DNA from: a virus
IMG/VR virus record: IMGVR_UViG_3300020281_000038
Span: 1 to 46,489 of that record
DNA: 46,489 nt
Reading direction: 5' to 3' (one strand)
Every line of letters starts with the position of its first letter. The stretch's first letter is position 1. Below the pieces are notes generated by a model. That model did not search any database and was not told the origin of the DNA. It saw only the letters and a list, made by a program, of their open reading frames with translations. Positions 19,313 to 46,489 of the stretch are shown piece by piece. A program made the translations under genes and the position numbers.

Positions 19313-19320
19313 TATTTATA
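19313..19320 (-). promoter_or_regulatory. T4-type late promoter before gp8
   Basis: The minus strand reads TATAAATA followed by ACAAC, 20 bases before the gp8 ATG. The TAA stop of the giant gp7 gene lies inside the box. It gives gp8 and the genes behind it a late promoter of their own after a 15-kb gene. Confidence 0.8.
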
Positions 19321-25300: not shown

Positions 25301-28300
25301 TGTAACTGTAATATTAGCTGTTGCACCAGATCCAGATCCAAGTCTATTTTTCAGTATAATATTATTGTATACGCCATTTGTATACTGTGAGCCAGGTGTT
25401 AGACCATTAGCAGTGTCAAAGGTTTTAATCTCATCACCAATAGTATCTAATTGGAAACTAGAGGTATATGATGCACGATCATAATACATCACAAGAACTG
25501 AAGATCCTACAAGTAAAGGATGCTTGAATGTTATAATATTATTTGCAAAAGTATAGTTTGCAGGATTTTGTGCAATACCATTAACTATAACAAACATCTG
25601 TTTAGACTCAGCAGTCTTACCAATCTTTGTGCCAATATCAATACCACCAGTTCTTATCTTAAACTGTGTATTGACTCCATCCTGATAAAGCCTAAATCCA
25701 TGACCTACACCAGTTCCAATACTACTGAAGTTGATTGCAGCTCCACCAGAACTTTCTCTCAACTCTATAGTATTTGCATCAACATATTTGATAAAATAAT
25801 TGTTACCACTAGTCAATCCACCAATAGCAGTTCCAGTTCTTGTATTTGGATAATTACCAATACTCTTTTCGGGTAGTGTTGATGGATTGTCAATAGCATC
25901 TGTTATAATTTTTGCAAAAGTAGTAATAGCACTCTTAACGTCAGCACAACCACCAGGATCGTTTGTAATACTTAAATCAGTTGTAGGTACTTTTGTTGTA
26001 TATGTGCCAATTGGTAAATCATTTGTGACTGCTAATAAACAAAGATCTCTTGCTTTATTATATGCAAATATAGTCTCTGTTTCTTCACCACCAATATGTC
26101 GTATATGATTTGCAGGATTAGATCTAGTTACAGTTGAAAGACTATCAGAACTAATAGCAGTAGTGACAATATCAAACAATACATCTTGTGCTGACTGAAT
26201 AGGAGCACATGTAGCAAGATTGAGTGTAATAGTAGTATCAATCGTCTGAGTTAGACCATGAGATCCTTGAATAGCAATAGCTTCATTAACAATGACCTTA
26301 CGAGCAAATTCTTTTGCTTTGTTGAACGCCCATATTGATTGTGTTTCTTCACCATCTAGATGAACTGTATTTACATAGTAATTTGCAGCATCATATACCT
26401 CACTGTTACCACCGTATGCTAGGTTATAAGCAACAGCCTCGATAACATCAACAATATCATCAATACAGTTTTGATTACCGCCAGGAACGCCAGCATATCC
26501 ACCAGGAACACCAACTGTAGGATCAGCAAGCATTTGTTCAACTACTTCATTAGCAATAAAGTTTTTATTATCTAAAAGTAACTGTCTAGCATCACCATGT
26601 GCATTACTTAACAATACAACTCCACCAACATAATATTCTGCTGCTGTAACACTGAAGAAGTTACCATCATATCTTAGATCATTAGTCCATGCTGCAACAA
26701 CTAGTCTTGTATCTCTAGCACAGGTTGCTGAGTTGTAAGTTAAAGTTGGATATGAAGCATTTAAAGCCCCTATTGTCTCTTCAACAATATAATCTATGTT
26801 GTTGATAATTAAATTTCTAGCATCTTGGAATCTATCACCACCAGCATTATAAGTTACACGTTGATTATCTACATATGGATGTCCTGTGAGAGTAATACGA
26901 TTAGTTGTCGTATCTACCACGCTAGTTGATGATCCATCAAAGTTTATTGTGTTATCTGTAATATCATCAATCTTATATGAGACGCAAGATAAGATCTTTT
27001 GTATATCTAATAATTGTCTACCAAATATTTGAACTTCTGTAGGAACAACTGCAGTATAGTCTGGTTTACCTAGTGCAAAGTTATTAATGGTTGATAATTT
27101 ACCAGTTGCTCTAGCAGATGGTTTTGGAGTAATAAATGTTGTACCATTAAATGTATCATTACCAGTATTAGTTGGTGATTGGAACCAAGCATAAGTGTCA
27201 GTAGATGCATCGTTAATAACTGGTAGTTGTCTATAGGTCTTAGATACTGTTTGAGTTAATACCTGTGTACCAACAACTTTAAAGCCTGCAGGATGAGCAG
27301 CAAACTTAAGTGGATTTTGCCAATCACTTATATTGATAGAAGATGATACATCATATGAGAATTCTTGGAACCTATTACTGTCATATACTCTCTGTTCATT
27401 AAGATCTAAGAAACCAGTAGTGCGTTCCCATGTTTTTGCAGAATCACTTATGGCTGATACTTCAAATACTGCATCTGCTTTACTAAACTCATGGATCTGA
27501 CCAAATGCTGCAGTTTCTTCACCAAATACAGGTTCACCTACTTTAAATTCACCTTCAACGATCTCTGCACTAACAACACGTCCAGAAGCATCCCAACCTT
27601 TAACAAATCCATAGGCTGTGTATGATGTTGGAGATGAACCTTGATAAATCCTCTCGCCTGGTGAGAAAGTAGCAGGTCTCATGTATGCAATGATATTATC
27701 ACCAAGATCTGTCGTTTCTAATGTAAAATAAGTTATTCCATTAGCATCACCAATAGGATCGGATGTAAATGTGATGAAAGTTCCAAGGTTTGCATTTGCA
27801 AGACTTGTAGCAAGTCTAATCTGGTTATCTGCCAATCCATTAGCAGTGGTTCTTGCAATCGCATAATAAGTTGTGCCAGCAATTAATGGTGAAGGGAATA
27901 CTCCATTGTTAGCTCTAAGAATTACTTTTGTACCTGTTGGTATCTTCGTATTATATGGGAAGTTTAATGTACTATTAGATTTTAACCCAACCCACGTATG
28001 AGTAACTTTTGCAGTTACTGTTGGTGCAGAGGTAAATCCTCTACCTGCACTAATTACAGAAACAGATTGTATAACTTCGTTCTCAATCTTAGGTAATAAA
28101 CTAAATTGAGATCCTTGACCACCAGTTAGAACAATCTCAGGTACTGCAACAAAATTTGAACCACCATCAATAACATCAAGATAATCAATAACTTGAGTTC
28201 TAGTAAGTTGTAAATTAAAGGTAGTGTTTAAAGATGGTTTTAAAGTTTTATCGTGACTGTAGTTGTAAGTAATATTATCACCACTTACTTTTAATATTCT

Positions 28301-31300
28301 ACCAAGATCAGATGACTTAAGTAATACTGAAGCACCAGATCCAGTTGACTGAGTAATTGTAACAACAGGTACACTTTGATATTGTACTCCACCATCTTCT
28401 ATATTAATAGCAGAAACACCTTCATTCTGAATAGAAGCATTGAACTTAGCATTGATACCATTACCACCACTAACAGTAACATCTGGGGCTGATAAGTATC
28501 CTGATCCACTATTGGTGATAGTGATAGTATCTACGGACGCATTAAGTAAAGTTGCAACAGTTGCCCTATCAGCATGTGACAGTGCGGTAACTGTCACGGT
28601 AGCATCATTTGCAGGTGTAGCACCACCTAACTGATCACCTGCTATAGTAATAATTTGAGTTAATGCATATGTAGTACCACCATCGGTGCATACTAGACTG
28701 GCAATATTTCCCGAACCATCAGTGACAACAGTAAACTTAGCACCACTACCACCAGGAGGTGCAACACTTGCAGCTGGTACGTCAGTATAAGTCTGGCCTG
28801 CTCCATAATTGCCACTAGATTGTGTCGTTAATGATACACCTGTACTATCAGTAGTAATTGATCCATAATAAGGATCTCCTAGAATAATAGAAGGAGCTGA
28901 CCTATAATTAGAGCCTGGATTTGTAACATTCATCTCAGTTAACTTACCACCACCAGATACAACAGCAGTAACTACTGCCTGTGTGCCACTTATAGAACTG
29001 ATTGTTGCTTGTGAATCTCCACTATAAACAGTGTCAGTATCAACGAACATAATATAACCAAATTGACCTGCACCTGTTTTAGTATTCTGTAGAGGTTTAA
29101 TTCTTAGTATTGAAGTTGTTGGATCCCAAGAGATAACTTGACCTCTTGCAGTAGAGTTTCCTATTAGTGGGTCTGATATAACAATTTCATCCTTAACAAA
29201 TGATCCAAATACGTTAGTAACACTCAAATCAACATAATCAGGTAATGTTACCATAGCTGCGGGTAGAACAGCATTATTATATCCACTACCTTGATTAGTA
29301 ATGGAAGTACCAGATAAGAAACCAGAAATGGTTGCAACAGCAGTTGCACCAGAACCAGATCTAGTAGATCCGCTTAATGATGGTAATGAGGAATAGTTTC
29401 GGCCAGGATCACCAATAGAGACACTTGCAACTCCACCAGAAGGATATATTGAATTTGTAGTAAATGATACACCATTAGCAACTGTATATGCACTTTCTGG
29501 TTCTAGAGCAGTAGAATACGTAAATGTATTGTCTGTTTTAGAAGTAACAATATTTGTACCCGTAACAGGGTCATTAATAACAGTAAAGTAACTTCCAGTG
29601 ATATTTCCTTGAAGATCGAAGTAATAGAAGATGCCAGGCAAATCTTTGATCAATATTGTGATTGAATCTTGCTCATTATCACTTACTGGAATTATTTCTT
29701 CTGTAACATTCTTATAAGTGAAAATATCGGTATTTGAAGGATCAAAAGTGAATGCAAGAAGTTTTCCTGCATTAGAAGCATCTTCAGTCGTAAATTTGTA
29801 ACTATGACCCGTAATAAGTTGTAATTTTGGTTCTTTGACGTAAACTTCGCTACTTCCGATATTTGCAGCTGCAATAGTTGCAAAATTACGTTTTACCGTA
29901 AATCTACGAAGAGTTTCGGTTCTAATAACGGTATAATCAGTTTTATTCCATTCAGTTGGAACAATTCCCGAAATATTGACTGTATCACCAATTCCAAGTT
30001 GATGTGCCTTGTCACAATGACATTCGGCCTCCATTTCAACTTGTGTAAGTGTAAGTAGGAACCCAGTACCGCCAGCTCCATTTCCTATGTTAAGATTGTC
30101 TACACTAATGGTATCACCAATGTTATATGCAGTACCAGTGTCTGTAATTGTTACTGTTGATACAGAATTGCTTGAAACAACGATAGTTGCCTTACCGCCC
30201 TTTCCAGAAGCACCGTTATTGGTAGTAATTATTGGAACATCAGTATATGTGCCATTTGCATAATTATTACCCAGTGAGTTAACACTCCAACCATTTTGTA
30301 CTAAATTACCATCCGTACGTCTTCTTAAGTATCTCCAAGACATAGAACCGTCAGATGCAGTGCCAGAAGTATGTGTTGGAGCAGTAGAAGCTGAAGTTCC
30401 TGTTTCTACAGCTTTATATACTCTATCTGAAACATAAATGATGTCTCCGCCAGCAAATGCAGTAGTATTTGCGTATGGAGCTATCAACTTCATACTTGTT
30501 AAGGAGAAATACTCAAAATAGTACTTACTGCCAATAACTTTAGTCTTTATTGTTCTTTCAAAAGCATTATCTGCAATACTTACTACAATTTGGTCACCTA
30601 CCACCAAATAATGATTATCTGCGGTTGAAATCGTTGTAGTATAGAGATCTGTTTGTGCACCTACAGAATTTGCAAGTGAATTTACAACTTCACCAGTAAT
30701 TGATGAGACAACACCACTAACACCTTCTCCACCAGTGCCTGAGTTGTCAAAAAGGAGCCTATCATTAACTTTATAGTTCTTACCACCACCCTCAACAAGG
30801 TATTGATCAATATTAGAAGAAGAATACTTATTTGTTGCCGAAACAACTAATGAATCTGCAGTACCACCTCTAATTGTTGGATAGTAACTGAAATAACCAA
30901 TACCATCCTCCAGATAAGTCAATACCTCACCAGTCTCCATCACAATCAAAGTTGTGGTGTCTTCCATTGCCAAATAGAAGTCTACTTTGTTATCAAGTGG
31001 TTTTCTTTTCGCTACAATGTTATCAGTGCCGATATATGGTGCTTTGTACCTAGTTGCATCTTCTGTAAAGTTTTTCTGTACTCCATTTCCATCCCAGTTA
31101 ACTTGATCTGCTTCACCGTAGAAATTAGGACCTATAAAGTATGGAAATACTGGTTCACCTGCAACACCCTTAATAGTACAGAAATATGCATAAACTCCAT
31201 TTGGATATTCTGGAGTTACGCAGTATCTGCCATTATAACGGTCTAAAGTACCTAAACCTTCCACATACTCATAATCTTCAATAAACGTCCCCATAGGTTC

Positions 31301-34300
31301 TGTCATACCGCTTAGAAGAGCATCTCTAGACTGCTTCAATCTATAACTGGTAATCGCCAATGTATATGAGTTATATGGACTTACGTTTTCTGGATCCTCA
31401 TATCCGTAGCATCCATATATGGGGTGGCCATCGTATGCCCAACCTATAATAGGTGAGTGTGAGGTAGGATTAAGTTCTACAAGTTGATCATCAATATTAT
31501 CTTTTAATATAAACCTAAGTTGCTTAGGGTTATAAAGATAAGCATATTCTCCACCATATAATAAATCATTCTCTCCTCTAAATATTCCTCCACCACCAAT
31601 ATCAGTAGTTTTTCTATTTGTAAATTGATTTGAAGGAAGTCCTAGTTCTTCATAGGTTGCAGCTTCGTTATATGTTAGTTCTGTTAAGTTTGTTTCAAAT
31701 ATTGCACCTGAGCCAGGATATACGATACTAATACTTGTAGCACCTGATGAATAACCTGCACCTTTGTTTGTAACAACAATATTAGTAACAATATTACTAC
31801 TACTGTCTACCTGAGCAAATGCAGTTGCACCAACTCCGTCTCCAGTGATAATAACGTCAGGAGCACCAAAGTATCCACTACCACCAAATGTAACAATGAT
31901 ACTTTCAATCTTTCCGTTCAATATGGATGGATATGCAACAGCACCATTACCAGAAATTAGATTGATAGTTGGTTCGTAAGTATATTCAGATCCTGCATCG
32001 GTAATACTAATAGTATCAATAGGTCCTCTACAAACAGCAGTGGCAGTAGCACCAAATCCACCTCCACCAGTAATTGCAACAGTAGGGATGCTAGTGTATC
32101 CAGATCCACCAGCAGTCACAGAAATACCTGTTACAGCACCATTAGTGATAATAGCGACTGCAGTTGCCTGTGTGCTACTAGTAGCTCCACCACCTACAAT
32201 TGAAACGATAGGTTCTGTTACATATCCACTACCACCATTATCAACGTTAATATTAGTTACTGATCCAGAAACTGTTACTGTTGCAGCTGCTGCTTCTCCT
32301 TCATATTCCCAGTTAATAGTTCCATGCTGCACAATACCGCTTACATGTGTTGGTTCTGTCGTAAGAGAAGCTCTACCAGTATCTGTTGCTCTATATCTAC
32401 GGAAATCGCCACCACCAATGTCAACTTTGACTCTAGTGAAGATTGAGTAGGTTTCACCTTTTTGATAAGTGGGTTCAAACTCAACTATTGGAGCATTGAG
32501 CACATCATAACCAATACCACCGTCAATTTTGGTTATTGTCTTAATACCACCAAATTTTTTGGTAGTTTCTCCCTTATATGAATAAAATGGAACTCCATTT
32601 GCAGCAATACCTATTTGACCAATAGGAGTAGGAGTTTTTGTACTTTTTACAGTTGGTGTAAGAGGAATACGCTTCAAATACCTTTGATTGCCAGGATCTA
32701 GGCCAGGATTATTAAAAGGTCCTATCTTATGAGAAGGAATACCAACAGATGCTACAATAGCGTGGGTATCTGACTTATATGTGTTCTGAACGTCTGTAGT
32801 AAAGTCTTTGATGACTGTATTGATTGATGCATAGTCACTTCTACCAAATGCAAACTCTCTAGCAATGAAAAACTCCTTTTCGGGTTGACCTGGTGCAGGA
32901 ATACCAAATTTAGGAGAACTACTAAACTTAAACTGGAATTGGAAGTTATCTACGATACCTATGACATCATGTTCGTTATTGTAGATGTCTTCGTCCGCAT
33001 TTAGAATTCTTATTCTGTCATTACGATTTAATCTATGTTGTTCTTTAGTAGTAACTGTACAAACAACACTACCATCAGATTCAACGCTTGATAACACCGC
33101 TGTGCTACCTCTGAGTGCCTTTCTGACGTTGTATATGAAACTATCCCATATTGGGTCAATACTATCGAAACCAGGTGCACTAGGGGTGCTTACCTTACTA
33201 TCAGGAGTGTAATACTTACCACCATCTCTCAATATGATGCCTTTAGTTCCACCATACACTTTTAACTGGATTTCAGACCCATCTACGTTGCTTGTACCAT
33301 AAATCTTGAATGCTGCAAAGACTTCTTGACCTGCATCATGTGCTAGGACGGAAGTATTCTCTCTACCACGAGTACAACCTAAAAATTGGTTAACAGTCTT
33401 GTTAGCATAGGTTATAATTTCATCTTCTATTCTAAATCTGCCATTTTCTTCAGGCCAACCCAAAGTAGAGTCAACAGTTACAATATTATCAGTAATAAGA
33501 TTTCCAATATCTGAAGAAAGCACAGTTTTGTATGGAGTAACAAAAGATCCTAGTGCATTATTTGTATCTACGTCAATTTCGTAAATTACAGTGTTCTCAG
33601 TAAAGACTTCTACAACACCTTTGACGTATATACGTGCAGCATCAACATTTGGATCATTTGGGTCGGCTTCTTGGTACAATACTTGCCCAACTAGCTCAGA
33701 AGGGTTACCAGAGACTGCTACAGCACGAATTACCTCTCTAGAAGTGTAATATGCATCGGATGGTTTGAATATTCTGTCTCTTGGATAGCTAACTTCCGAT
33801 TCTACGCCAAAAAGTGTCCTTAAGACGAACTGAAATGACCTTGTTGACCCTTTTGAAGCATAAAAGTCCTTAATTCTCTTAATTACAGTAGATTCAGTAA
33901 CTCCAGTTGCAAAATTCTTCGGATAAGTCGATAAAAACTGTTCTTTGAACTTCCCAAGTACATAAAGTGGGAAAATGTTGTTCAAATTGACAACTTTGTC
34001 GCCAATTTCATGACTTGCAGCTACAGTTTCCTCAAAATTGTACTTTCCGACCTGTCCAATGGTCTTTACAGCGTTAAATCCTCTTGTGCAGTTCTCAAAT
34101 AGAGTAGATTTCTTACTTTGGTAATAAATTATCTCATTTCCAATGCAAATTATACCTTCATTCGGAAAATCACGTGTACTTGCTACAGAAACTGATGTAG
34201 TTGTTGCATCAATAGCACCAATTAGATTAGTTTCCTCTACAAGGCCACCATAATTATCAATATTATAATAATCTCCCCAGTTTTGAATAATATCAAAACA

Positions 34301-34510
34301 ATATCCCTTTAATTCTTGTGACTTATAATACTCCTTTACAAAATCTATAAACGTTGGAAAGTTATCTTGGATAAAACTTGCAAACTGCCCAGAAACATTG
34401 GTCGAAATTTTCGACCTAGATTCAGGACTAACCTCAGACGGTACTGGAGGTACAGTAACCGTTGTGGTGGGGGTAGTCCACGAGCTAACCTTCCATGAAG
34501 AATTTGTCAT
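19316..34510 (-). CDS. 7: Giant gp7-like baseplate wedge protein, 5064 aa
   Basis: Only the N-terminal 300 residues resemble T4 gp7, specifically its C-terminal third: FASFIQDNFPTFIDFVKEYY (about 43-62), VIKRIKDFYASKGSTRSFQF (about 209-228) and LVGQVLY (about 273). The rest is modular. GSGY/YxxP beta modules fill about 740-990 and 1500-2100. A YHYH domain lies near 1015-1110 (PIIGWAYDGHPIYG, NGRYCVTPEYPNGVYAYF). A cupredoxin-shaped segment that has lost its ligands lies near 1560-1645. Helical Cys-containing modules lie near 2560-2880 and 4380-4530, and at least twelve TYPR-type repeats near 3080-4340. Two LIFLNG modules stand near 4590-4700. T4 gp7 has 1032 residues, so this is five times longer. 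It lies between gp6 and gp8, as in T4. A role in the wedge is secure; the added modules probably project outward. Confidence 0.9.
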   Translation of the reverse strand: MTNSSWKVSSWTTPTTTVTVPPVPSEVSPESRSKISTNVSGQFASFIQDNFPTFIDFVKEYYKSQELKGYCFDIIQNWGDYYNIDNYGGLVEETNLIGAIDATTTSVSVASTRDFPNEGIICIGNEIIYYQSKKSTLFENCTRGFNAVKTIGQVGKYNFEETVAASHEIGDKVVNLNNIFPLYVLGKFKEQFLSTYPKNFATGVTESTVIKRIKDFYASKGSTRSFQFVLRTLFGVESEVSYPRDRIFKPSDAYYTSREVIRAVAVSGNPSELVGQVLYQEADPNDPNVDAARIYVKGVVEVFTENTVIYEIDVDTNNALGSFVTPYKTVLSSDIGNLITDNIVTVDSTLGWPEENGRFRIEDEIITYANKTVNQFLGCTRGRENTSVLAHDAGQEVFAAFKIYGTSNVDGSEIQLKVYGGTKGIILRDGGKYYTPDSKVSTPSAPGFDSIDPIWDSFIYNVRKALRGSTAVLSSVESDGSVVCTVTTKEQHRLNRNDRIRILNADEDIYNNEHDVIGIVDNFQFQFKFSSSPKFGIPAPGQPEKEFFIAREFAFGRSDYASINTVIKDFTTDVQNTYKSDTHAIVASVGIPSHKIGPFNNPGLDPGNQRYLKRIPLTPTVKSTKTPTPIGQIGIAANGVPFYSYKGETTKKFGGIKTITKIDGGIGYDVLNAPIVEFEPTYQKGETYSIFTRVKVDIGGGDFRRYRATDTGRASLTTEPTHVSGIVQHGTINWEYEGEAAAATVTVSGSVTNINVDNGGSGYVTEPIVSIVGGGATSSTQATAVAIITNGAVTGISVTAGGSGYTSIPTVAITGGGGFGATATAVCRGPIDTISITDAGSEYTYEPTINLISGNGAVAYPSILNGKIESIIVTFGGSGYFGAPDVIITGDGVGATAFAQVDSSSNIVTNIVVTNKGAGYSSGATSISIVYPGSGAIFETNLTELTYNEAATYEELGLPSNQFTNRKTTDIGGGGIFRGENDLLYGGEYAYLYNPKQLRFILKDNIDDQLVELNPTSHSPIIGWAYDGHPIYGCYGYEDPENVSPYNSYTLAITSYRLKQSRDALLSGMTEPMGTFIEDYEYVEGLGTLDRYNGRYCVTPEYPNGVYAYFCTIKGVAGEPVFPYFIGPNFYGEADQVNWDGNGVQKNFTEDATRYKAPYIGTDNIVAKRKPLDNKVDFYLAMEDTTTLIVMETGEVLTYLEDGIGYFSYYPTIRGGTADSLVVSATNKYSSSNIDQYLVEGGGKNYKVNDRLLFDNSGTGGEGVSGVVSSITGEVVNSLANSVGAQTDLYTTTISTADNHYLVVGDQIVVSIADNAFERTIKTKVIGSKYYFEYFSLTSMKLIAPYANTTAFAGGDIIYVSDRVYKAVETGTSASTAPTHTSGTASDGSMSWRYLRRRTDGNLVQNGWSVNSLGNNYANGTYTDVPIITTNNGASGKGGKATIVVSSNSVSTVTITDTGTAYNIGDTISVDNLNIGNGAGGTGFLLTLTQVEMEAECHCDKAHQLGIGDTVNISGIVPTEWNKTDYTVIRTETLRRFTVKRNFATIAAANIGSSEVYVKEPKLQLITGHSYKFTTEDASNAGKLLAFTFDPSNTDIFTYKNVTEEIIPVSDNEQDSITILIKDLPGIFYYFDLQGNITGSYFTVINDPVTGTNIVTSKTDNTFTYSTALEPESAYTVANGVSFTTNSIYPSGGVASVSIGDPGRNYSSLPSLSGSTRSGSGATAVATISGFLSGTSITNQGSGYNNAVLPAAMVTLPDYVDLSVTNVFGSFVKDEIVISDPLIGNSTARGQVISWDPTTSILRIKPLQNTKTGAGQFGYIMFVDTDTVYSGDSQATISSISGTQAVVTAVVSGGGKLTEMNVTNPGSNYRSAPSIILGDPYYGSITTDSTGVSLTTQSSGNYGAGQTYTDVPAASVAPPGGSGAKFTVVTDGSGNIASLVCTDGGTTYALTQIITIAGDQLGGATPANDATVTVTALSHADRATVATLLNASVDTITITNSGSGYLSAPDVTVSGGNGINAKFNASIQNEGVSAINIEDGGVQYQSVPVVTITQSTGSGASVLLKSSDLGRILKVSGDNITYNYSHDKTLKPSLNTTFNLQLTRTQVIDYLDVIDGGSNFVAVPEIVLTGGQGSQFSLLPKIENEVIQSVSVISAGRGFTSAPTVTAKVTHTWVGLKSNSTLNFPYNTKIPTGTKVILRANNGVFPSPLIAGTTYYAIARTTANGLADNQIRLATSLANANLGTFITFTSDPIGDANGITYFTLETTDLGDNIIAYMRPATFSPGERIYQGSSPTSYTAYGFVKGWDASGRVVSAEIVEGEFKVGEPVFGEETAAFGQIHEFSKADAVFEVSAISDSAKTWERTTGFLDLNEQRVYDSNRFQEFSYDVSSSINISDWQNPLKFAAHPAGFKVVGTQVLTQTVSKTYRQLPVINDASTDTYAWFQSPTNTGNDTFNGTTFITPKPSARATGKLSTINNFALGKPDYTAVVPTEVQIFGRQLLDIQKILSCVSYKIDDITDNTINFDGSSTSVVDTTTNRITLTGHPYVDNQRVTYNAGGDRFQDARNLIINNIDYIVEETIGALNASYPTLTYNSATCARDTRLVVAAWTNDLRYDGNFFSVTAAEYYVGGVVLLSNAHGDARQLLLDNKNFIANEVVEQMLADPTVGVPGGYAGVPGGNQNCIDDIVDVIEAVAYNLAYGGNSEVYDAANYYVNTVHLDGEETQSIWAFNKAKEFARKVIVNEAIAIQGSHGLTQTIDTTITLNLATCAPIQSAQDVLFDIVTTAISSDSLSTVTRSNPANHIRHIGGEETETIFAYNKARDLCLLAVTNDLPIGTYTTKVPTTDLSITNDPGGCADVKSAITTFAKIITDAIDNPSTLPEKSIGNYPNTRTGTAIGGLTSGNNYFIKYVDANTIELRESSGGAAINFSSIGTGVGHGFRLYQDGVNTQFKIRTGGIDIGTKIGKTAESKQMFVIVNGIAQNPANYTFANNIITFKHPLLVGSSVLVMYYDRASYTSSFQLDTIGDEIKTFDTANGLTPGSQYTNGVYNNIILKNRLGSGSGATANITVTNNSVSNVVLNQAGNGYTPNDFLGLSEIGSQLTNNYVPSTATYNPSTGDLELTIGSHTLTTNDKIRIANNSLTFSCSYGGGGTASYPRATDPIGNLFDVPIDAVSATTITVNALQGTSPTNTDAHTWQGLSTYQFQPTKVKYYPATGDMTLTVASHGMIKGDRVLIDTDSLTFTCSKDNNSTNHTYPRASDPAGGSWLTIDKVTTNSFTVNVGKNERFSFTPTNSTYTASTGVLTLTLGNHNLLGAVSHTATGAVYTPADGKVVITVNGHGMSNGDLVLIEDDSLSFDCTHGSGTKTYPRSTDPISGKFIEIFDVTNNTFTIQCLETIPSTNTTTHTFVSAVANGIKQAQDVITIKENGLVFTCEMDARATKHSYPRSTDPANGAPLGIYSVTSDTVTTFVGKSPLVTKTPTNAIYDPSNGEMELVIGSHDFYAGQTIKLADGAVSFTCNRDNYRTVHSYPRTTFTGHELTTVSYNPNNGVMTVTAPSHGFSNNDWVKFKPESLGMTCSEDAYTSTKLYPRTTDFAYDRWLKVSNVTTNTFDVTVLDVIPSTNIANHTFVSAPKITPSTAAYNATTGIMSITDQKYTVNTGTTYDPQSGLLVMNIGAHNLTTSNKIRIVPDSLTFTCILDGNTVQKTYPRASGTGVNAGVADYAYQRNLPISAVTANTITVNVNNNGQPISDLSAHTFISSTTDCIEVCHGLNNGDFVKIKDNSLAFNCTQGVGTKTYPRPAVRTLTASAPASKSVTSATYDPATGLVVLTTPSANTWASAPTQHQVTNAVYVPSTGIMTLTIANHGFTELELIKIDDDALTFRCDEDSQASDHTYPRSTDPISGKWIEIFNVTNDTFDIQVLDIIPSTNVTNHVFQSATATGLSHATSSVRFYPNALNFTCAMDGNTATKTYPRAKDPYYGRKAAVTAVNSTTATVYVGKSPIVNHTATDGTYDPGTGALILEIGAHNLTVGTTVKLANNGFTFQCATDSYGTDHTYPRATAGDGNPDPAYDTAVTILAVTDTTITLNVGISQDLSTHRWKPGFVATNAIQSGGGYAHTWTGGGESFALNASDSTLGNSTGTQYYPETGILHITTTVAHGMRENDYVKIADNSITFVCEQDNYNTTHSYPRSTDYASGKWLKIFNVTEWEFDVKILDSVPSTNVSKHVFSSAVPDGITHKDPASGNFIEVSNVTHNTFDVQVLTKTPSTNTTVHTFVNADTDAIYVAPFFKKKDPFYDTALEIISTSPDSITVDVLTTEQSTSVYKHKFQSALSNSVITGGNYTHKFNSADAGCVKTGDRHTFVSAGSNSVTRAIVSHGYHKYDKGADAASLIRKNLNFIATTAYGRMQANNPLFSTVYQTKCLRDTRLLTDAVADNVEFGGNDATYDAAKFYVGSNHLTGEEDESVQVFNHARDICNQIMRNITVTTNAGTKGKQIKDLTITNDSGNNVYDTNDCTDIASTITTLWAIVTTAVGTTAGGSGNLNSVTRTVSTSPDFQIKVGSVTFDGVDTAFTTQSGGSTQILPASDNFLIFLNGTFQIKGTTDAYTYTGSTITFTEPPLPGMDFYGYYFGKLVLLDDLSPYFDSSRTTFVMRNENEPFSLESDNEAVNPSNNLLIFLNGIFQEPGVAYTLRGSVIEFSEPPRAQSQCVMFIFTGGPNDILVANTFNSIDANDKMQIVSEGSDRRIATVSSSSSVDTYEYTGLRPTVAEFEAVVTGGAVTQVNITNVGSNYENPPVLIFTGGGGVGATAQTTIEEGSGKVLSVINLKGGSGYTSTPTVIAAHPIHLERFERNRIVSDSNLLGVTYLTSSINATDTTLNLRNVWYNVSQKYGFADEGEVLIPYYNPNTDSSGNVIGWRNERILFGAKDTVNNTLTVATGGRGFMGTTAYAHNVITGTYTVSQSSRIVTVTTSSDHNMQTGENRIFLDFSSGTNINQSDAVNFITYIPPDGVYDITRTGNTSFTIEIPNELRRVNPANGGLLDVGYPGTITGNVSLLPEVRLRSL
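21480..25260 (-). repeat. TYPR protein repeat array inside gp7
   Basis: About 3.8 kb encodes at least twelve imperfect copies of a 70-105-residue unit. Its landmarks are YDPxTGxMxLTIxxHG, then DSLTFTC, then a charged loop ending in (H/K)TYPR(S/A)TDP, then IxxVTxxTFxVxVL and finally HTFxSA. Copies differ in length; some halves are missing or fused, which points to unequal exchange. The array shows in the DNA as recurring blocks on the plus strand of the type cgtggatatg near 21940, 22335, 22820, 23110, 23385, 23740, 23920, 24180, 24410, 24745 and 25040. Confidence 0.85.
25870..26840 (-). repeat. Duplicated helical Cys module inside gp7
   Basis: The encoded segment has two adjacent copies of a helical module with ARxLIxxNxxFI, a Cys followed by acidic and basic residues, NLxYGGNxxVYDAAxYYV and GEExxSxxAFNxAR. 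A further half copy follows (IRHIGGEETETIFAYNKAR). A separate copy lies at about 20920-21360. This is the only clearly helical part in the otherwise beta-rich second half of the protein. Confidence 0.75.
31170..31465 (-). other. YHYH domain region of gp7
   Basis: Codes for about 98 residues that match the YHYH family, named for its conserved Tyr-His-Tyr-His pattern. The markers are SHSPIIGWAYDGHPIYG at one end and LDRYNGRYCVTPEYPNGVYA, then YF, at the other, with paired tyrosines and the DGHPIYG turn intact. The domain is known from bacterial secreted proteins and from structural proteins of marine T4-like phages. Its role on a baseplate is not established. Confidence 0.75.
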
Positions 34511-39248: not shown

Positions 39249-39436
39249 TATGCAACCTCCATCCACTTGAACTCAGAGATGCTACCGACTTTCCAAATTG
39301 TGATTGGACGTTCTAGCAATTCTGCCTGTCTCTCTGCGTGACGCTTTGCGTCTGCAAACATAGATCCGTCAAATACGTCTGCCCAGATCTTGACTTCGTT
39401 TCCGTAGTCTGTAGGTTGAACTGCCCATGTAGTCAT
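39248..39436 (-). CDS. Small protein, 62 aa
   Basis: A 62-residue protein: MTTWAVQPTDYGNEVKIWAD, then VFDGSMFADAKRHAERQAEL and ITIWKVGSISEFKWMEVA. It shows a strand, a helix with ADAKRHAERQAELL, and two more strands. The frame is open further upstream to 39529, but AGGAG lies about 7 bases before the ATG at 39436 and a TATAAT box would transcribe only from about 39455, so the shorter form is chosen. It overlaps the 41-aa gene by one base. The function is unknown. Confidence 0.7.
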   Translation of the reverse strand: MTTWAVQPTDYGNEVKIWADVFDGSMFADAKRHAERQAELLERPITIWKVGSISEFKWMEVA

Positions 39437-39461
39437 GTGTGCTCCTGTGTGGTATGTACTT

Positions 39462-39470
39462 ATTATAGCA
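39462..39470 (-). promoter_or_regulatory. Extended -10 early promoter
   Basis: The minus strand reads TGCTATAAT, a full extended -10 element, 26 bases before the ATG at 39436. It lies in a perfect inverted repeat of TATTATA and TATAATA (39461-39479). The -35 region is weak. Confidence 0.6.
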
Positions 39471-39479
39471 TGTATAATA

Positions 39480-39504
39480 CCCCCGTCTATGTAGTTGACG
39501 AGGG
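39480..39504 (-). terminator. Possible terminator hairpin
   Basis: CCCTCGTC and GACGGGGG on the minus strand pair over eight positions (one G-U) around a 9-base loop. The stem ends right before the TATTATA of the next promoter. There is no proper T tract, so termination is uncertain. Confidence 0.4.
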
Positions 39505-39518
39505 ATTGAAACATTCGT

Positions 39519-39773
39519 TTACAATTCATCTAAGCACTCGCACATTTCATCATAGTCTGCTTCAGTCCACTTTGCACCATCTGGGGTCTTATCCATGCCA
39601 AAGTGCTGCATCTCTAGGATAAAGTCGAACCAGTCCTCGCAACCTTTCGCTATATTGTAGAGTCCTTCGTCCCCACCTATCCAGAGGGCACAGTTCCATG
39701 TAGTCCAATCTGCCCACCCGTTATAGGTTTTCTTTGGGAGATCGGTGAGATTGAGTGATTGCTGAAAAGTCAT
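39519..39773 (-). CDS. DUF7249-like small phage protein, 84 aa
   Basis: An 84-residue acidic protein with the pattern TYNGWADWTTWNCALWIGGDE, followed by LYNIAKGCEDWFDFILEM. It resembles the widespread phage family with an opening YNGWxNYxTWNxALWL, called DUF7249 to my recollection. It is rich in Trp and Cys and ends in a helical acidic segment (YDEMCECLDEL). The ATG at 39797 lies in the TATAAT box itself, so it cannot be on a transcript from that promoter; the ATG at 39773 is therefore preferred. Small proteins of this kind are usually early and of unknown function. Confidence 0.7.
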   Translation of the reverse strand: MTFQQSLNLTDLPKKTYNGWADWTTWNCALWIGGDEGLYNIAKGCEDWFDFILEMQHFGMDKTPDGAKWTEADYDEMCECLDEL

Positions 39774-39795
39774 TAATGCTTTAGTCGTTAGTATC

Positions 39796-39801
39796 ATTAT
39801 A
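39796..39801 (-). promoter_or_regulatory. Early promoter -10 box after a terminator
   Basis: TATAAT on the minus strand directly follows the T tract of a terminator. The 14 bases TTTTCCTTTATAAT here also occur at the plus-strand module at 42215-42228. The -35 region falls in the hairpin and has no good match. Confidence 0.5.
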
Positions 39802-39805
39802 AAGG

Positions 39806-39841
39806 AAAAACCGTCCCCCTACCAACTAAAAGGGACGGTTT
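39806..39841 (-). terminator. Rho-independent terminator
   Basis: A perfect 10-pair stem, AAACCGTCCC with GGGACGGTTT, around a 14-base loop, followed by TTTTT on the minus strand. Confidence 0.8.
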
Positions 39842-39991
39842 CTCAAGTGGTTGAGTCGGAGGTTCGATTTAAAAAGCATTTTCCTCTGGGGTCGCTTACC
39901 CGTGCCCGACTCGGCCGTATGGGACTTACAACAATTGACCTTTTAACGCGGTAATGCTTCCGCTGGTGAGATGTACGCCCAAGCACCTTAA
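39842..39991 (-). other. Structured noncoding stretch
   Basis: 150 bases without a convincing gene. On the plus strand GAGTCGG (near 39853) can pair with CCGACTC (near 39907), and there are further GC-rich blocks. A 13-base block, AAGTGGTTGAGTC (39844-39856), recurs with one change at 40688-40700. No tRNA cloverleaf can be drawn. It could be an untranslated leader, a decayed tRNA or a small RNA; nothing decides between these. Confidence 0.35.
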
Positions 39992-40159
39992 TTAGTGCCT
40001 ATCTGATATGTACCAGACCCCGTAAGCATTTAATCTTTGGGGTTCAAAGTTTCTCTTTGCCATCGCGTCAAGTGTTGCCTTAACCACGGGATCTTGCATT
40101 GCGGTTTTGTTCATTAGAACTTTGCCTTCATACATTGGTGTTAGATCGGAGTTGAACAT
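39992..40159 (-). CDS. Small protein, 55 aa
   Basis: A 55-residue protein starting MFNSDLTPMYEGKVLMNKTA, then MQDPVVKATLDAMAKRNFEP and ending VWYISDRH. An upstream in-frame ATG exists at 40216, but a TATAAT box at 40184 lies between the two, so the transcript would include only the start at 40159. The layout is a helix (VVKATLDAMAKR) followed by a strand. There are no recognised domains. It is followed by about 150 bases of noncoding sequence and then a terminator. Confidence 0.6.
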   Translation of the reverse strand: MFNSDLTPMYEGKVLMNKTAMQDPVVKATLDAMAKRNFEPQRLNAYGVWYISDRH

Positions 40160-40183
40160 AGAGTTTGTTTGCTGTACACTCTT

Positions 40184-40189
40184 ATTATA
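40184..40189 (-). promoter_or_regulatory. Early promoter -10 box
   Basis: GTGTATAATAAG on the minus strand, 24 bases before the ATG at 40159. The same TATAATAAG sequence occurs at the promoter before 39436. No good -35 is seen. Confidence 0.5.
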
Positions 40190-40235
40190 CACGTGATAGG
40201 GTTGAGGTCTGCACATTGTTACAAAAGTGTAATAA

Positions 40236-40304
40236 TTAAGGATTGAATAATAGGATGAAGATCAACAGGATCCAGTCGATCGGATTTAGTCCCTTTTCTT
40301 TCAT
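40236..40304 (-). CDS. Hydrophobic micropeptide, 22 aa
   Basis: A 22-codon frame beginning MKEKGLNPID, followed by twelve mostly hydrophobic residues rich in Leu, Ile and Phe, and ending FNP. Its ATG overlaps the TGA of the preceding gene (ATGA), the coupling arrangement used by many other genes here. The core could cross or lie in a membrane. A short frame can arise by chance, so confidence is moderate to low; if real it may act on the host membrane. Confidence 0.4.
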   Translation of the reverse strand: MKEKGLNPIDWILLIFILLFNP

Positions 40305-40600
40305 GTGATTGCTAATTCAGCAACTACCGTGCTAGAATACAAATAGCATTCTTGATTAAATGCTTTCTTGTAACGTTTGCCGACTGCATGCAGTGCAGAT
40401 ATCACCGCTGTGTCTTCAGTCGTTACGCTTACCGTCATGCACTGTTCAATTTCGCCTTTGTATATTCCGATCCCTTCGGTGATAGTCGCATACTCTAGCA
40501 AGTTAAGGACCTCATCTTTTAAAAATGTGTTCCACATTTGCTTAGTAACTTTGCCACTGTTAGGAATGTTTCTACCTAGGGTGATGCTGTGAGTTTGCAT
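40301..40600 (-). CDS. DUF3574-like protein, 99 aa
   Basis: A 99-residue alpha/beta protein. The start MQTHSITLGRNIPNSGKVTK, the QMWNTFLKDEV helix, TITEGIGIYKG and the C-terminal helix with AVGKRYKKAFNQE follow the layout of DUF3574-like proteins: a strand, a GxxI turn, a helix that ends with EV, and a TVxEGxGxW-type strand. It is common in marine T4-like phages. The frame is open to ATGs at 40639 and 40663. The fold's natural first strand begins at 40600, but the earlier ATG at 40639, with AGGATC upstream, cannot be excluded. It is the first gene leftward of a divergent promoter. The function is unknown. Confidence 0.7.
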   Translation of the reverse strand: MQTHSITLGRNIPNSGKVTKQMWNTFLKDEVLNLLEYATITEGIGIYKGEIEQCMTVSVTTEDTAVISALHAVGKRYKKAFNQECYLYSSTVVAELAIT

Positions 40601-40663
40601 AAAGCAGTAATCTTCGTATGTGATTCTATTGTAATGCATAGTGAGCAAGATCCTAGGGCTCAT

Positions 40664-40750
40664 GTGCCACTAATATTTGTGTCTACTAAGTGGTTGAATC
40701 TTTGACTCGATCGTTTATTATAATAGAGTACACATAAGCGACTCATTCTA
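40664..40750. promoter_or_regulatory. Divergent promoter region
   Basis: 87 bases between outward-facing genes. It holds TATTATAATA (40716-40725), a perfect palindrome that gives a TATAAT box on both strands. TTGAAT (40694-40699) is a possible plus-strand -35 with a long 19-base spacer. AAGTGGTTGAATC (40688-40700) repeats a block from the noncoding stretch near 39844. Confidence 0.55.
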
Positions 40751-40996
40751 ATGATCCTACGTCAATTCGGTTCTAATCAAACTGAGATCACCTTCAACAA
40801 TGGCACATCTATTTTCTTTTCATATGAAACACCTGTTGCAGGTCACACTCTACTTGATGGTTATTTCAAAACTGATACCTATTATTCAAGAACAACTAGC
40901 AAGCACATCAATCAGTATTTGAAGCACGCTGACTCATACGTCAAGACTGTTACAAATGATTACATTACTAACCTTTGTCACCCAGAGGGAGTATAA
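40751..40996 (+). CDS. DUF8033-like small phage protein, 81 aa
   Basis: An 81-residue protein. The patterns TEITFNNGTSIFFSYETPVA and YFKTDTYYSRTTSKHINQYL match a family of small phage proteins (DUF8033 to my recollection): two strands with a FSYxTPV, a tyrosine-rich turn, and a helix starting TSKHI. It is the first gene of the rightward run, 26 bases after the TATAAT box. There is no strong ribosome site. These proteins are early and of unknown role. Confidence 0.75.
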   Translation: MILRQFGSNQTEITFNNGTSIFFSYETPVAGHTLLDGYFKTDTYYSRTTSKHINQYLKHADSYVKTVTNDYITNLCHPEGV

Positions 40997-41003
40997 TAGA
41001 GTC

Positions 41004-41198
41004 ATGAGCAACAAACAAGAAACTCAGTGGTTGAGAACAATCACAATGACCGAACCAGAAGAAGCAGTCCTTGTTTCACTGGCGAGGTACTTCGTCGATA
41101 TGGGTTTACCCGACGACATCAACGAGTCAGACTTCGACTCACTCGTTGACAAAATATGCGAACCTAGTCCTTTTGATTATCAACCTTATGGGAAATGA
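41004..41198 (+). CDS. Small acidic protein, 64 aa
   Basis: A 64-residue acidic protein: MSNKQETQWLRTITMTEPEE, the helix AVLVSLARYFVDMGLPDD and the acidic end INESDFDSLVDKICEPSPFD. The frame is open upstream to 40956, but that part overlaps the previous gene. The ATG at 41004 is 7 bases after the previous stop, and the sequence between reads TATAATAGAGTC, a possible internal -10 box. It overlaps the next gene by 11 bases. The function is unknown. Confidence 0.65.
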   Translation: MSNKQETQWLRTITMTEPEEAVLVSLARYFVDMGLPDDINESDFDSLVDKICEPSPFDYQPYGK

Positions 41199-41346
41199 AG
41201 ATTTTATGGAGTCACTCGCTGACTCCATCTATGACCAGATCGTCACAGAGAACTTTAAAGACTTGACGACTGATGAAGAGCAACTCGTTTATGAGATTGC
41301 ATGCACCAAAGCAAACGAACAGTTTGAGTCTGGTGCATACGAATAA
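41188..41346 (+). CDS. Small helical protein, 52 aa
   Basis: A 52-residue acidic helical protein: MGNEDFMESLADSIYDQIVT, then DLTTDEEQLVYEIACTKANE. The longer frame from 41071 is a shadow of the previous gene in its first 39 codons; the ATG at 41188 starts the protein-like part and overlaps the previous stop. It resembles the short helical early proteins of T4-like phages only in general character. The function is unknown. Confidence 0.6.
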   Translation: MGNEDFMESLADSIYDQIVTENFKDLTTDEEQLVYEIACTKANEQFESGAYE

Positions 41347-41369
41347 TTGATCCTTTACCAACTTTAATT

Positions 41370-41894
41370 ATGCCCAATCATTGCTACAACCGAGTCACAT
41401 TCTATAGTGACGATACTACAGCGATCCTAAAACTGCATAAAATCTTTATGCAAGGGATCGAGAATGATGACAGCACTGAAACTACTAAAACAGTGTTTGG
41501 AAATTTCATACCAGAACCAAACTGGGAAGAAATACCACTACATGAAAATGACGTTAAAGAGTATTCATTTTCTAAACCTAGAGGTGAAGTGGGCGAATGT
41601 CCTAAAATGATTATAGATGAGAAATCACCTTTTAGGTCTGGATTACGTTTCCAGTCTACTGATGTTATGGACGATCGGTGGTATAACTGGCGAGTTCAAA
41701 ACTGGGGTACTAAGTGGGATTGCTACGACCTAAGCATTGACGACTCAGACATGCCACACGGATTCGAGGTGAATTTCAATACTGCGTGGTCACCGCCTGA
41801 AGGGATACATTATGCAATCCGAGAACAATTCGACGATCTCAGCATGAGTTGGTTCTATGATGAACCAGGTTGTGAAGTAGCGGGGTATCTATAA
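41370..41894 (+). CDS. YubB/Api92-like ferredoxin-like fold protein
   Basis: A 174-residue protein with landmarks of the Api92/YubB (DUF1281) group, which has a ferredoxin-like fold: MPNHCYNRVTFYSDD at the start, FGNFIPEPNW, WYNWRVQNWGTKWDCYD in the middle, and VNFNTAWSPPEGIHYAIREQ near the end. These proteins are widespread in phages and plasmids and their activity is not established. The gene is preceded by 23 bases of A/T-rich sequence and followed directly by the 90-aa gene (stop at 41894, ATG at 41895). No metal or catalytic site is apparent. Confidence 0.85.
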   Translation: MPNHCYNRVTFYSDDTTAILKLHKIFMQGIENDDSTETTKTVFGNFIPEPNWEEIPLHENDVKEYSFSKPRGEVGECPKMIIDEKSPFRSGLRFQSTDVMDDRWYNWRVQNWGTKWDCYDLSIDDSDMPHGFEVNFNTAWSPPEGIHYAIREQFDDLSMSWFYDEPGCEVAGYL

Positions 41895-42167
41895 ATGGAC
41901 GGCCTGAATCGTGAAGAGCTCAATGAGCTCAAAGAGTTCTTAACTGAAAGGATGGTGGATAATATGTCCACCAAAGAACTAGTCGAGTATGTTGCAAATG
42001 ACCTTTTCAACTACTACGACAAACTAGGTGAGCATGAATTTATGGAAGAGGCTCGCGAGTACTGGTGCGACGAAGAACAACTACAAGAGATCATCGCAGA
42101 CATTAAAGACTATACTAAATGCGAGTTTAAACAACCGCTTAAGACGTTTACTGCAGAGACAGACTAA
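41895..42167 (+). CDS. Acidic helical protein, 90 aa
   Basis: A 90-residue, strongly acidic, helical protein: MDGLNREELNELKEFLTERM, then ELVEYVANDLFNYYDKLGEH and WCDEEQLQEIIADIKDYT. It begins on the base after the stop of the YubB-like gene and ends before a terminator hairpin at 42184. Its composition recalls DNA-mimic or antidote-type phage proteins, but nothing in the sequence proves that. No domain is recognised. Confidence 0.7.
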   Translation: MDGLNREELNELKEFLTERMVDNMSTKELVEYVANDLFNYYDKLGEHEFMEEAREYWCDEEQLQEIIADIKDYTKCEFKQPLKTFTAETD

Positions 42168-42183
42168 TGTAAACAATTGTTTC

Positions 42184-42216
42184 AATATGCCCATGTATTT
42201 CCTATATGGGCATATT
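42184..42216 (+). terminator. Rho-independent terminator
   Basis: An 11-pair perfect stem, AATATGCCCAT with ATGGGCATATT, around an 11-base loop, followed by TT and then CC. Confidence 0.75.
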
Positions 42217-42222
42217 TTCCTT

Positions 42223-42228
42223 TATAAT
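42223..42228 (+). promoter_or_regulatory. Early promoter -10 box after a terminator
   Basis: TATAAT stands 7 bases beyond the hairpin. The 14 bases TTTTCCTTTATAAT are identical to those of the minus-strand module at 39796. The next ATG is 26 bases downstream. Confidence 0.55.
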
Positions 42229-42253
42229 AAAAGAGTACCAACGAAATTGATTT

Positions 42254-42454
42254 ATGCAATTCCTTTACGTAGACATCACAAACTATCCCGTAACACGCGA
42301 GGGTATCTATCAAGCATGTTATGACGAAGTAGTCGCTGAAGCGACAGATACTGGAGATCTACCTATGTATGGTCAACAGATGCTGAACCAATCAGCACAA
42401 TGGAAGTTTGAAGACTTCATGAACGATATCGAAAAAATGGTGGGGGTCAAGTAA
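42254..42454 (+). CDS. Small protein, 66 aa
   Basis: A 66-residue protein: MQFLYVDITNYPVTREGIYQ, then ACYDEVVAEATDTGDLPMYG and WKFEDFMNDIEKMVGVK. A short strand followed by helices. It is the first gene after the terminator-promoter module. Its stop overlaps the ATG of the next gene (TAATG). The family is not recognised. Confidence 0.7.
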   Translation: MQFLYVDITNYPVTREGIYQACYDEVVAEATDTGDLPMYGQQMLNQSAQWKFEDFMNDIEKMVGVK

Positions 42455-42714
42455 TGAACTCATCATTTAACGATTTCATAGAGTACTGCAAGTCCTTCTA
42501 TGGTTATGGCGGTCTCTATGACCAAGGCAGATCTAGAGAACAGATCGCGTACGCAACATGCATTTATCTTGATGCGATCGCTCATTACGACAGCGACGTA
42601 TACTCTTGGGGGGACGGGGATAGTCTCGACCGTGAAAGAGTAAGAGACATCATGAACCAGATTTATGATGGTGGTTACAATCCATTTGCACACCTTGAAG
42701 AGGTGGTAGCATGA
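42454..42714 (+). CDS. Small protein, 86 aa
   Basis: An 86-residue acidic helical protein: MNSSFNDFIEYCKSFYGYGG, LYDQGRSREQIAYATCIYLD, then RERVRDIMNQIYDGGYNPFA. The RSREQI/AxATxxYL helix and YDxG turns look conserved. It overlaps both neighbours (TAATG at its start, ATGA at its end), so it is translated in a coupled run. It has no recognised motif; early expression is inferred. Confidence 0.7.
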   Translation: MNSSFNDFIEYCKSFYGYGGLYDQGRSREQIAYATCIYLDAIAHYDSDVYSWGDGDSLDRERVRDIMNQIYDGGYNPFAHLEEVVA

Positions 42715-43796: not shown

Positions 43797-43826
43797 ATTA
43801 TAGCAGATCTGAGTGCTTTTTGCCAA
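43797..43826 (-). promoter_or_regulatory. Sigma-70-type promoter
   Basis: On the minus strand TTGGCA (43821-43826) and TATAAT (43797-43802) are 18 bases apart, with TGC before the -10 (extended -10). The strongest host-type promoter I see here. Confidence 0.7.
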
Positions 43827-43926
43827 TCTCGGAGACACTTTGAGAACTGTCACATTTGGGCTTGACATCTCGTGCACTGTCGGCTAAGACGAACTCTCCA
43901 AGCCGCTCAAATATATTTAAAACGAC

Positions 43927-46047: not shown

Positions 46048-46053
46048 ATTATA
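46048..46053 (-). promoter_or_regulatory. Early promoter -10 box in stop codon
   Basis: The minus strand reads CTATAATAATAG; TATAAT contains the TAA stop of the partial gene that ends at 46049. The ATG at 46031 follows 16 bases later. The same TATAATA core is seen at 39462, 40184 and 40719. Confidence 0.5.
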
Positions 46054-46489
46054 GTGCATCCAAGTCTCTTTGTCTACCACTACGTGTCACTTGTGCAGCT
46101 GGCACACCGTTCATTAAATTATTGATTACTGGTGCGAGTCTCTCCTTCCAGAATGTGAAGTACTCATCAATTGTGAATGGTAACTCATCATTGAACCATC
46201 TGTATAGGTCAGACACACCAAAGATGGATATACCTAGATTTGTATACTCACGTGATATCTCGATTGGTATCTCTCTCTTTACTGGTACGAAGTAACCACT
46301 CTGCACGTTGATGATGTCATGCTTTTCCTCTAGTGCATTGGCAATGTCATGTATCTTCTGGTTAGATGCTCTGACCTTCTCAGTATCAAAATTCACATTG
46401 CACTTACTCTCTAGGTACATATGTGATGCATACATTAGATCAGGTATAGTGAAGAAGTGATCTATCTGTCTTGTCCTACCATTGACATC
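46049..46489 (-). CDS. Partial gene at right edge, at least 147 aa
   Basis: The frame is open to the edge of the window, so its start is outside; the ATG at 46435 is an internal Met. The visible part reads RTRQIDHFFTIPDL near its beginning, then NQKIHDIANALEEKHDIINV, VPVKREIPIEISREYTNLGI, SIFGVSDLYRWFNDELPFTI and the end QVTRSGRQRDLDAL. It looks like the C-terminal part of a mixed alpha/beta protein. I do not recognise the family. Its stop codon is part of the promoter of the next gene. Confidence 0.65.
   Translation of the reverse strand, partial: DVNGRTRQIDHFFTIPDLMYASHMYLESKCNVNFDTEKVRASNQKIHDIANALEEKHDIINVQSGYFVPVKREIPIEISREYTNLGISIFGVSDLYRWFNDELPFTIDEYFTFWKERLAPVINNLMNGVPAAQVTRSGRQRDLDAL

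What the first reader, a model, noticed from the sequence alone, without database searches (positions are those of the whole stretch)
39796..42228. Repeated terminator-plus-promoter module on both strands
A perfect hairpin with its T tract runs straight into TTTTCCTTTATAAT at 39796-39841 (minus) and 42184-42228 (plus). The 14 bases are identical although the hairpins differ. A third, looser case is the hairpin at 39480-39504 followed by a TATAAT box. This would end one early unit and begin the next within 45 bases.
Basis: seen in the sequence. Interest (0 to 1): 0.55.

Follow-up and report, generated by a model that had tools for sequence, protein, structure and literature searches.

The report
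Cyanophage promoters with built-in terminators
In this virus of ocean cyanobacteria, gene switches are packed so tightly that the stop signal of one gene sits inside the start signal of the next, apparently as part of a promoter design shared by many related viruses.

Summary
In detail: both 14-mers are exact, each follows a strong hairpin, and the looser third case exists. The window is a 46-kb IMG/VR fragment of a T4-like cyanophage near P-HM1, P-HM2 and MED4-213. The 14-mer itself is not conserved; a larger composite promoter is.

Class A promoters carry a 24-bp palindrome, TGTGMCAGTTnnnnAACTGKCACA, ending 28-30 bases before TATAAT. In a wide viral-contig scan, 62 of 88 element/TATAAT pairs fell at those three of 31 spacings; in a narrower scan 117 of 120 loci carried cyanomyovirus-like proteins. 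Two window modules instead have a TGTAAACAATTGTTTCA-like element one helical turn further out.

In about a third of modules the spacer holds a hairpin of variable sequence (54 of 161 thinned; 5 expected). Hairpins covary between relatives and occur mainly where a co-directional gene has just ended (94 of 246 against 13 of 110, p=2e-7). I read them as intrinsic terminators nested between a regulator site and the -10 box, so one unit ends where the next begins.

No transcript data were available: termination, initiation and early timing are inferred. A published Syn9 promoter map (Doron 2016, known by recall) could not be read.

The parts
39831..39854 (-). module 1: class A upstream element (weak), overlapped by the hairpin
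   Evidence: matrix score 11.4, ends 29 bases before TATAAT
39805..39844 (-). module 1: terminator-like hairpin, 16 pairs
   Evidence: fold z -5.7; covariation in 8 sequences
39796..39801 (-). module 1: -10 box TATAAT; downstream ORF 39519-39773
   Evidence: gene conserved in 70 viral loci
42168..42184 (+). module 2: class B upstream element TGTAAACAATTGTTTCA
   Evidence: TATAAT 38 bases on; element kept in 3 relatives aligned
42184..42216 (+). module 2: terminator-like hairpin, 14 pairs
   Evidence: fold z -5.6
42223..42228 (+). module 2: -10 box TATAAT; downstream ORF 42254-42454; upstream ORF ends 42167
39507..39523 (-). module 3: class B upstream element TGTAAACGAATGTTTCA, containing the stop codon of ORF 39519-39773
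39480..39504 (-). module 3: hairpin of 8 pairs, no T tract
   Evidence: fold z -4.0; covariation in 9 sequences
39462..39467 (-). module 3: -10 box TATAAT; ATG at 39434-39436
40663..40686 (.). palindrome between divergent genes, -10 boxes on both sides (40719-40724 +, 40628-40633 -), no hairpin
   Evidence: scores 14.5 and 16.0
43831..43854 (-). class A palindrome, -10 box at 43797-43802, no strong hairpin
   Evidence: score 24.1
46083..46106 (-). class A palindrome, -10 box at 46048-46053, no strong hairpin
   Evidence: score 19.6

Best explanation
The three sites are composite promoters of a T4-like cyanophage. Each has an upstream dyad element, probably bound by a still unknown regulator, at a set distance from a TATAAT -10 box. 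The otherwise free spacer between them is used as an intrinsic terminator for the co-directional gene upstream. RNA polymerase arriving from upstream folds the hairpin, releases its RNA at or next to the -10 box, and a new round starts there for the next small gene. Shown: hairpins, conserved element and spacing, covariation, dependence on an upstream co-directional gene. Inferred: termination and initiation in the cell, activation by a protein, timing, and hand-over of released polymerase.
For: Element and spacing: 108 of 2818 TATAAT sites pass in 11 cyanophages and the window with 5 in the reversed control, T4 1 of 306; in a wide scan 62 of 88 pairs lie at 28-30 of 15-45 bases; 117 of 120 loci of the narrower scan are cyanomyovirus-like. 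Hairpins in the spacer: 26 of 103 against 1.9 expected, 54 of 161 against 5.1, 29 of 95 against 1.5. Covariation in modules 1 and 3, 0 of 500 shuffles reach the score. Hairpin after a co-directional ORF 94 of 246, otherwise 13 of 110, p 2.0e-7. All 3 named relatives have a different hairpin before a -10-like box at the place of module 2.
Against: No transcript data. Some hairpins abut TATAAT without a T tract, and module 3 has none. Without the element, hairpins near TATAAT are only about twofold enriched, with no excess in P-RSM4 and P-RSM6. About two thirds of palindrome promoters have no strong hairpin. Module 1 matches the class A element weakly (11.4).
Confidence: 0.72

Rival explanations
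1. Plain compaction: ordinary terminators and ordinary host-type -10 promoters pressed together in a small genome, with no functional coupling and no dedicated upstream regulator.
For: Hairpins are absent from most promoters without an upstream co-directional gene, so each part can be explained alone. Generic scans show no excess of either signal in the region.
Against: The palindrome and its 28-30 base spacing are far from chance and not a host-type signal. This rival explains the hairpin but not the element.
Confidence: 0.35
2. The hairpin is a DNA-level part of the promoter (a cruciform or a spacer shape), not a terminator.
For: Some hairpins have no T tract and end directly at TATAAT. Pairing is kept while sequence changes.
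Against: Most palindrome promoters lack a hairpin, among them the divergent one at 40663-40686. Hairpins go with an upstream co-directional gene. T content is raised after the stem, 3.7 of 8, against A before it, 2.2 of 8.
Confidence: 0.1
3. The palindrome is a repressor operator, not an activator site.
For: It is a symmetric site typical of dimeric regulators, and one palindrome can lie between two divergent promoters.
Against: It ends 28-30 bases before TATAAT, upstream of where a -35 would lie, with tightly set spacing, and class B steps by about ten bases. Both suggest contact with polymerase from upstream.
Confidence: 0.2
4. The hairpins mainly protect or process the 3' ends of upstream messages rather than stop transcription.
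For: They sit just after stop codons, and some lack a T tract.
Against: Many are textbook GC-rich stems followed by runs of T.
Confidence: 0.12

Closest known systems
Intrinsic (Rho-independent) terminators
   Same: Stable stem right after a stop codon, often with a T tract
   Different: Tail runs into a -10 box; some members lack the T tract; the stem lies inside a promoter spacer
T4 early and middle promoters (MotA/AsiA)
   Same: TATAAT -10; middle promoters have an activator box in place of a -35 (recalled)
   Different: Element is a 24-bp palindrome 28-30 bases upstream of the -10; T4 shows 1 of 306 sites; cyanomyoviruses are reported to lack motA and asi (PMC2984593, passage)
Host PhoB-controlled cyanophage promoters (S-PM2d, PMC10976474, passages)
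   Same: Phage promoters with upstream sites for a regulator; class B looks like tandem half-sites about ten bases apart
   Different: Class A is an inverted, not a tandem, repeat; no binding was tested
Polymerase recycling and reinitiation after termination (PMC6978380, PMC11347151; passages)
   Same: Terminator and next promoter are close, the arrangement said to favour reinitiation
   Different: Shown in vitro with E. coli polymerase; here the stem ends at most about 11 bases from the -10 box and nothing was measured

Membership tests
Intrinsic terminator | Stable GC-rich stem-loop | tested here: met
   z -5.7, -5.6, -4.0; covariation
Intrinsic terminator | T tract directly after the stem | tested here: inconclusive
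   Present in modules 1 and 2, absent in module 3; 3.7 T of 8 on average in 54 strong cases
Intrinsic terminator | Transcripts end there | not testable with these tools
   needs 3'-end data
Sigma-70-type promoter | TATAAT -10 box | tested here: met
   exact in all three modules
Sigma-70-type promoter | TTGACA-like -35 at 16-18 bases | tested here: inconclusive
   Modules 1 and 3 have 4-of-6 matches inside the hairpin region, module 2 none; promoter-like sites in the region do not exceed shuffles
T4 middle promoter | MotA box close upstream of the -10 (position recalled) | tested here: not met
   The conserved element found lies 28-30 bases upstream and is palindromic; the MotA box itself was not scanned for
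T4-type late promoter | TATAAATA-like box | tested here: not met
   boxes read TATAAT followed by G or A
Pho box promoter | Tandem PyTTAAPyPyT/A repeats | not tested
   Class A is visibly an inverted repeat; class B was not scanned with the Pho consensus

The most novel reading that the evidence does not exclude
The 24-bp palindrome 28-30 bases before TATAAT marks the main activated early or middle promoter of T4-like cyanophages, read by a single undescribed regulator and standing in for the missing MotA/AsiA system. Terminators nested in its spacer make the small genes a relay in which polymerase released by one unit is caught by the promoter of the next.
Probability: 0.25. Interest if true: 0.78.

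Novelty: new variant of a known kind. Interest (0 to 1): 0.52.

Why it matters
How T4-like cyanophages control early and middle genes without MotA and Asi has been called unclear (PMC2984593, passage). A sequence-defined promoter class, with exact element, spacing and many instances per genome, makes that question directly testable and gives annotators a way to mark transcription units in marine phage contigs. The nested terminator is a natural case of almost no distance between terminator and promoter, in which polymerase recycling could be measured.

Tried and rejected
The 14-mer as a conserved unit: rejected. It is absent from 3 of 3 relatives with up to 1 mismatch.

A structured RNA in the gap at 39845-39991: only 2 weak Rfam matches, both elsewhere in the stretch scanned; 39842-39991 folds no better than shuffles, z 0.49.

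A host origin of the palindrome: the exact palindrome occurs in 8 contigs of the GTDB genomes, none titled Prochlorococcus or Synechococcus and none with TATAAT at the right distance. Only exact matches were tried.

Class B element in unselected viral contigs: spacing is flat (231 pairs), so the bare core is not specific. Its 28/38/48 steps were seen only among cyanophage loci (71 pairs, 40 after thinning), many of them orthologues, so this is suggestive only.

Position statistics around all TATAAT (2823 sites) and intergenic ones (525 sites) gave almost no signal; a first seeding with 1-mismatch -10 boxes failed.

Biases: the alignments for covariation used 8 and 9 sequences that looked alignable (the window plus 7 and 8 of the 70 loci); the matrix was trained on the same genomes that one search counts; the 14-mer set is not a matched control.

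Full report
What was checked. The window is a 46,489-base virus record. Its nearest named relatives are Prochlorococcus phages MED4-213, P-HM1 and P-HM2, at 74-75% identity over about 40% of 39400-42500. The genes on either side are small and of unknown function in the relatives. They form two divergent blocks, which is why the modules lie on both strands.

Orthologous places. Downstream of the gene of T4-like cluster 371, all three named relatives have a different hairpin followed by a -10-like box: P-HM1 CCAGCTG...CAGCTGG then TTTTGTTATAAT; MED4-213 the same hairpin with TATACT; P-HM2 TTGAGAAAG...CTTTCTCAA, a T run and TAGAAT. The arrangement is kept while the sequence is not. Around the 84-aa gene at 39519-39773, which has 70 relatives in viral contigs, many of the loci printed show a different hairpin before TATAAT on either side of the gene. 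In alignable relatives the stems keep pairing through changes on both sides: module 1, 92.7% of cells paired against 84.3% shuffled, covariation 0.399 against 0.242; module 3, 91.4% against 68.8%, and 0.580 against 0.194; 0 of 500 shuffles reach these values. In module 3 several C-G pairs become G-C. These sequences were picked because they could be aligned.

The conserved part. Reading the relatives showed a dyad upstream of the hairpin. A pattern search and an iterated matrix on exact TATAAT sites in 11 cyanophages and the window gave TGTGMCAGTTnnnnAACTGKCACA, with the core CTGKCAC starting mostly 36-38 bases before TATAAT. It passes in 108 of 2818 sites, with 5 in the reversed-upstream control; T4 has 1 of 306. 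Hits per genome: P-SSM2 17, P-RSM4 15, P-SSM7 13, P-SSM4 12, P-HM1 11, S-PM2 9, P-HM2 8, MED4-213 7, Syn9 5, P-RSM6 5, window 4, S-SM2 2. The five of P-RSM6 all score 13.4 or less and may be background. Annotated genes just downstream in P-SSM7 include a helicase region, a peptidase, cobS and small unknown genes.

Wider test. A scan of the viral contigs for AACTGTCACA followed by TATAAT at 15-45 bases, with no reference to hairpins, gave spacing 28, 29 or 30 in 62 of 88 pairs in the 80 loci shown; the 28 other spacings share 26. The combination is close to a signature of this group.

The hairpin. Score 18 or more: 26 of 103 against 1.9 (0 in the 30 bases downstream of TATAAT and 2 in the 30 upstream of the palindrome), 54 of 161 against 5.1, 29 of 95 against 1.5. 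In 356 thinned modules with element score 14 or more, 94 of 246 that follow a co-directional ORF (75 nt or longer, ending 20-75 bases before TATAAT) have such a hairpin, against 13 of 110 that do not, p 2.0e-7; stricter ORF lengths give similar odds. The ORF test is mechanical and will misplace some genes. This is what a terminator of the upstream gene predicts and what a required promoter part does not. The T side is downstream: 3.7 T in the 8 bases after strong stems against 2.2 A in the 8 before.

Results against. Genome-wide and without the element, hairpins near TATAAT are only about twofold enriched in the cyanophages and window (69 against 30.7; T4 6 against 4.9), with no excess in P-RSM4 and P-RSM6. 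P-RSM4 has 15 matrix hits, nearly all without a strong hairpin. Some hairpins abut TATAAT with no T tract. The third window module lacks a T tract.

Window modules. Module 1 has a weak class A element at the usual distance, overlapped by the hairpin. Modules 2 and 3 have TGTAAACAATTGTTTCA-like elements (class B) 38 and 39 bases before TATAAT. Among cyanophage loci, class B cores sit at 27-28 (9), 37-40 (17) and 48 (6) bases of 40 thinned pairs, as if moved by whole helical turns; orthologues inflate this. At 40663-40686 one palindrome lies between divergent genes with a -10 box on each side and no hairpin: the bare promoter.

How it probably works. The dyad would bind a dimeric regulator that helps polymerase at a -10 box with a poor -35. 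The free spacer is used as terminator for the gene before, whose stop codon can even lie inside the dyad (39519-39521). E. coli polymerase can stay on DNA after intrinsic termination and restart at a nearby promoter (PMC6978380, passages; PMC11347151, passages). Here that distance is almost nil, so hand-over is possible, but it is not shown.

Literature. Cyanomyoviruses are said to lack motA and asi, with sigma-70-like early motifs in S-PM2 and Syn9 and an unclear early/middle mechanism (PMC2984593, passages; PMC5780444, passages). P-HM2 has early, middle and late clusters (PMC5082946, passages). Host PhoB binds some S-PM2d promoters (PMC10976474, passages). Promoters and terminators were predicted in cyanophages before with BPROM and TransTermHP (PMC3037559, passages). 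PMC9692554 and PMC5931967 were seen as passages. In the listings of searches, and in the passages read, I saw no description of this palindrome or of the nested terminator; but most subscription papers are not held, and the Syn9 promoter map (Doron et al. 2016, recalled; cited in PMC5780444) was not available. I therefore rate novelty as a new variant, with that reservation.

Noticed in passing
window 40628-40724: One 24-bp palindrome between divergent genes with a -10 box on each side at similar distance, so one site may drive both blocks.
   Followed up: partly
L126-L222 and cyanophage pieces: Class B elements (WTTGTTWCA) lie about 28, 38 and 48 bases before TATAAT, steps of one helical turn; some show tandem half-sites about ten bases apart, recalling sites of OmpR-type regulators such as PhoB or RpaB (recalled, no call).
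   Followed up: partly
window 39842-39991 (-): About 190 bases without a called gene, with GAGTCGG/CCGACTC arms; parts recur in L154, L163 and L189. No Rfam match there and no unusual folding.
   Followed up: partly
P-SSM7 1581, P-SSM4 1944, P-RSM4 2197 (L281, L300, L291): Three phages have a palindrome-hairpin-TATAAT module at a similar place near the start of the record; in P-SSM7 gp32 begins at 401, so the module may follow gp32.
   Followed up: no
window 19316-34510 (-): A 5064-aa open reading frame, with further frames of 2404 and 2238 aa in the same block; not examined.
   Followed up: no
L356 (Mojavia pulchra MAG): Two exact copies of the palindrome about 2 kb apart, in front of two similar open reading frames; unrelated spacing, meaning unknown.
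   Followed up: no
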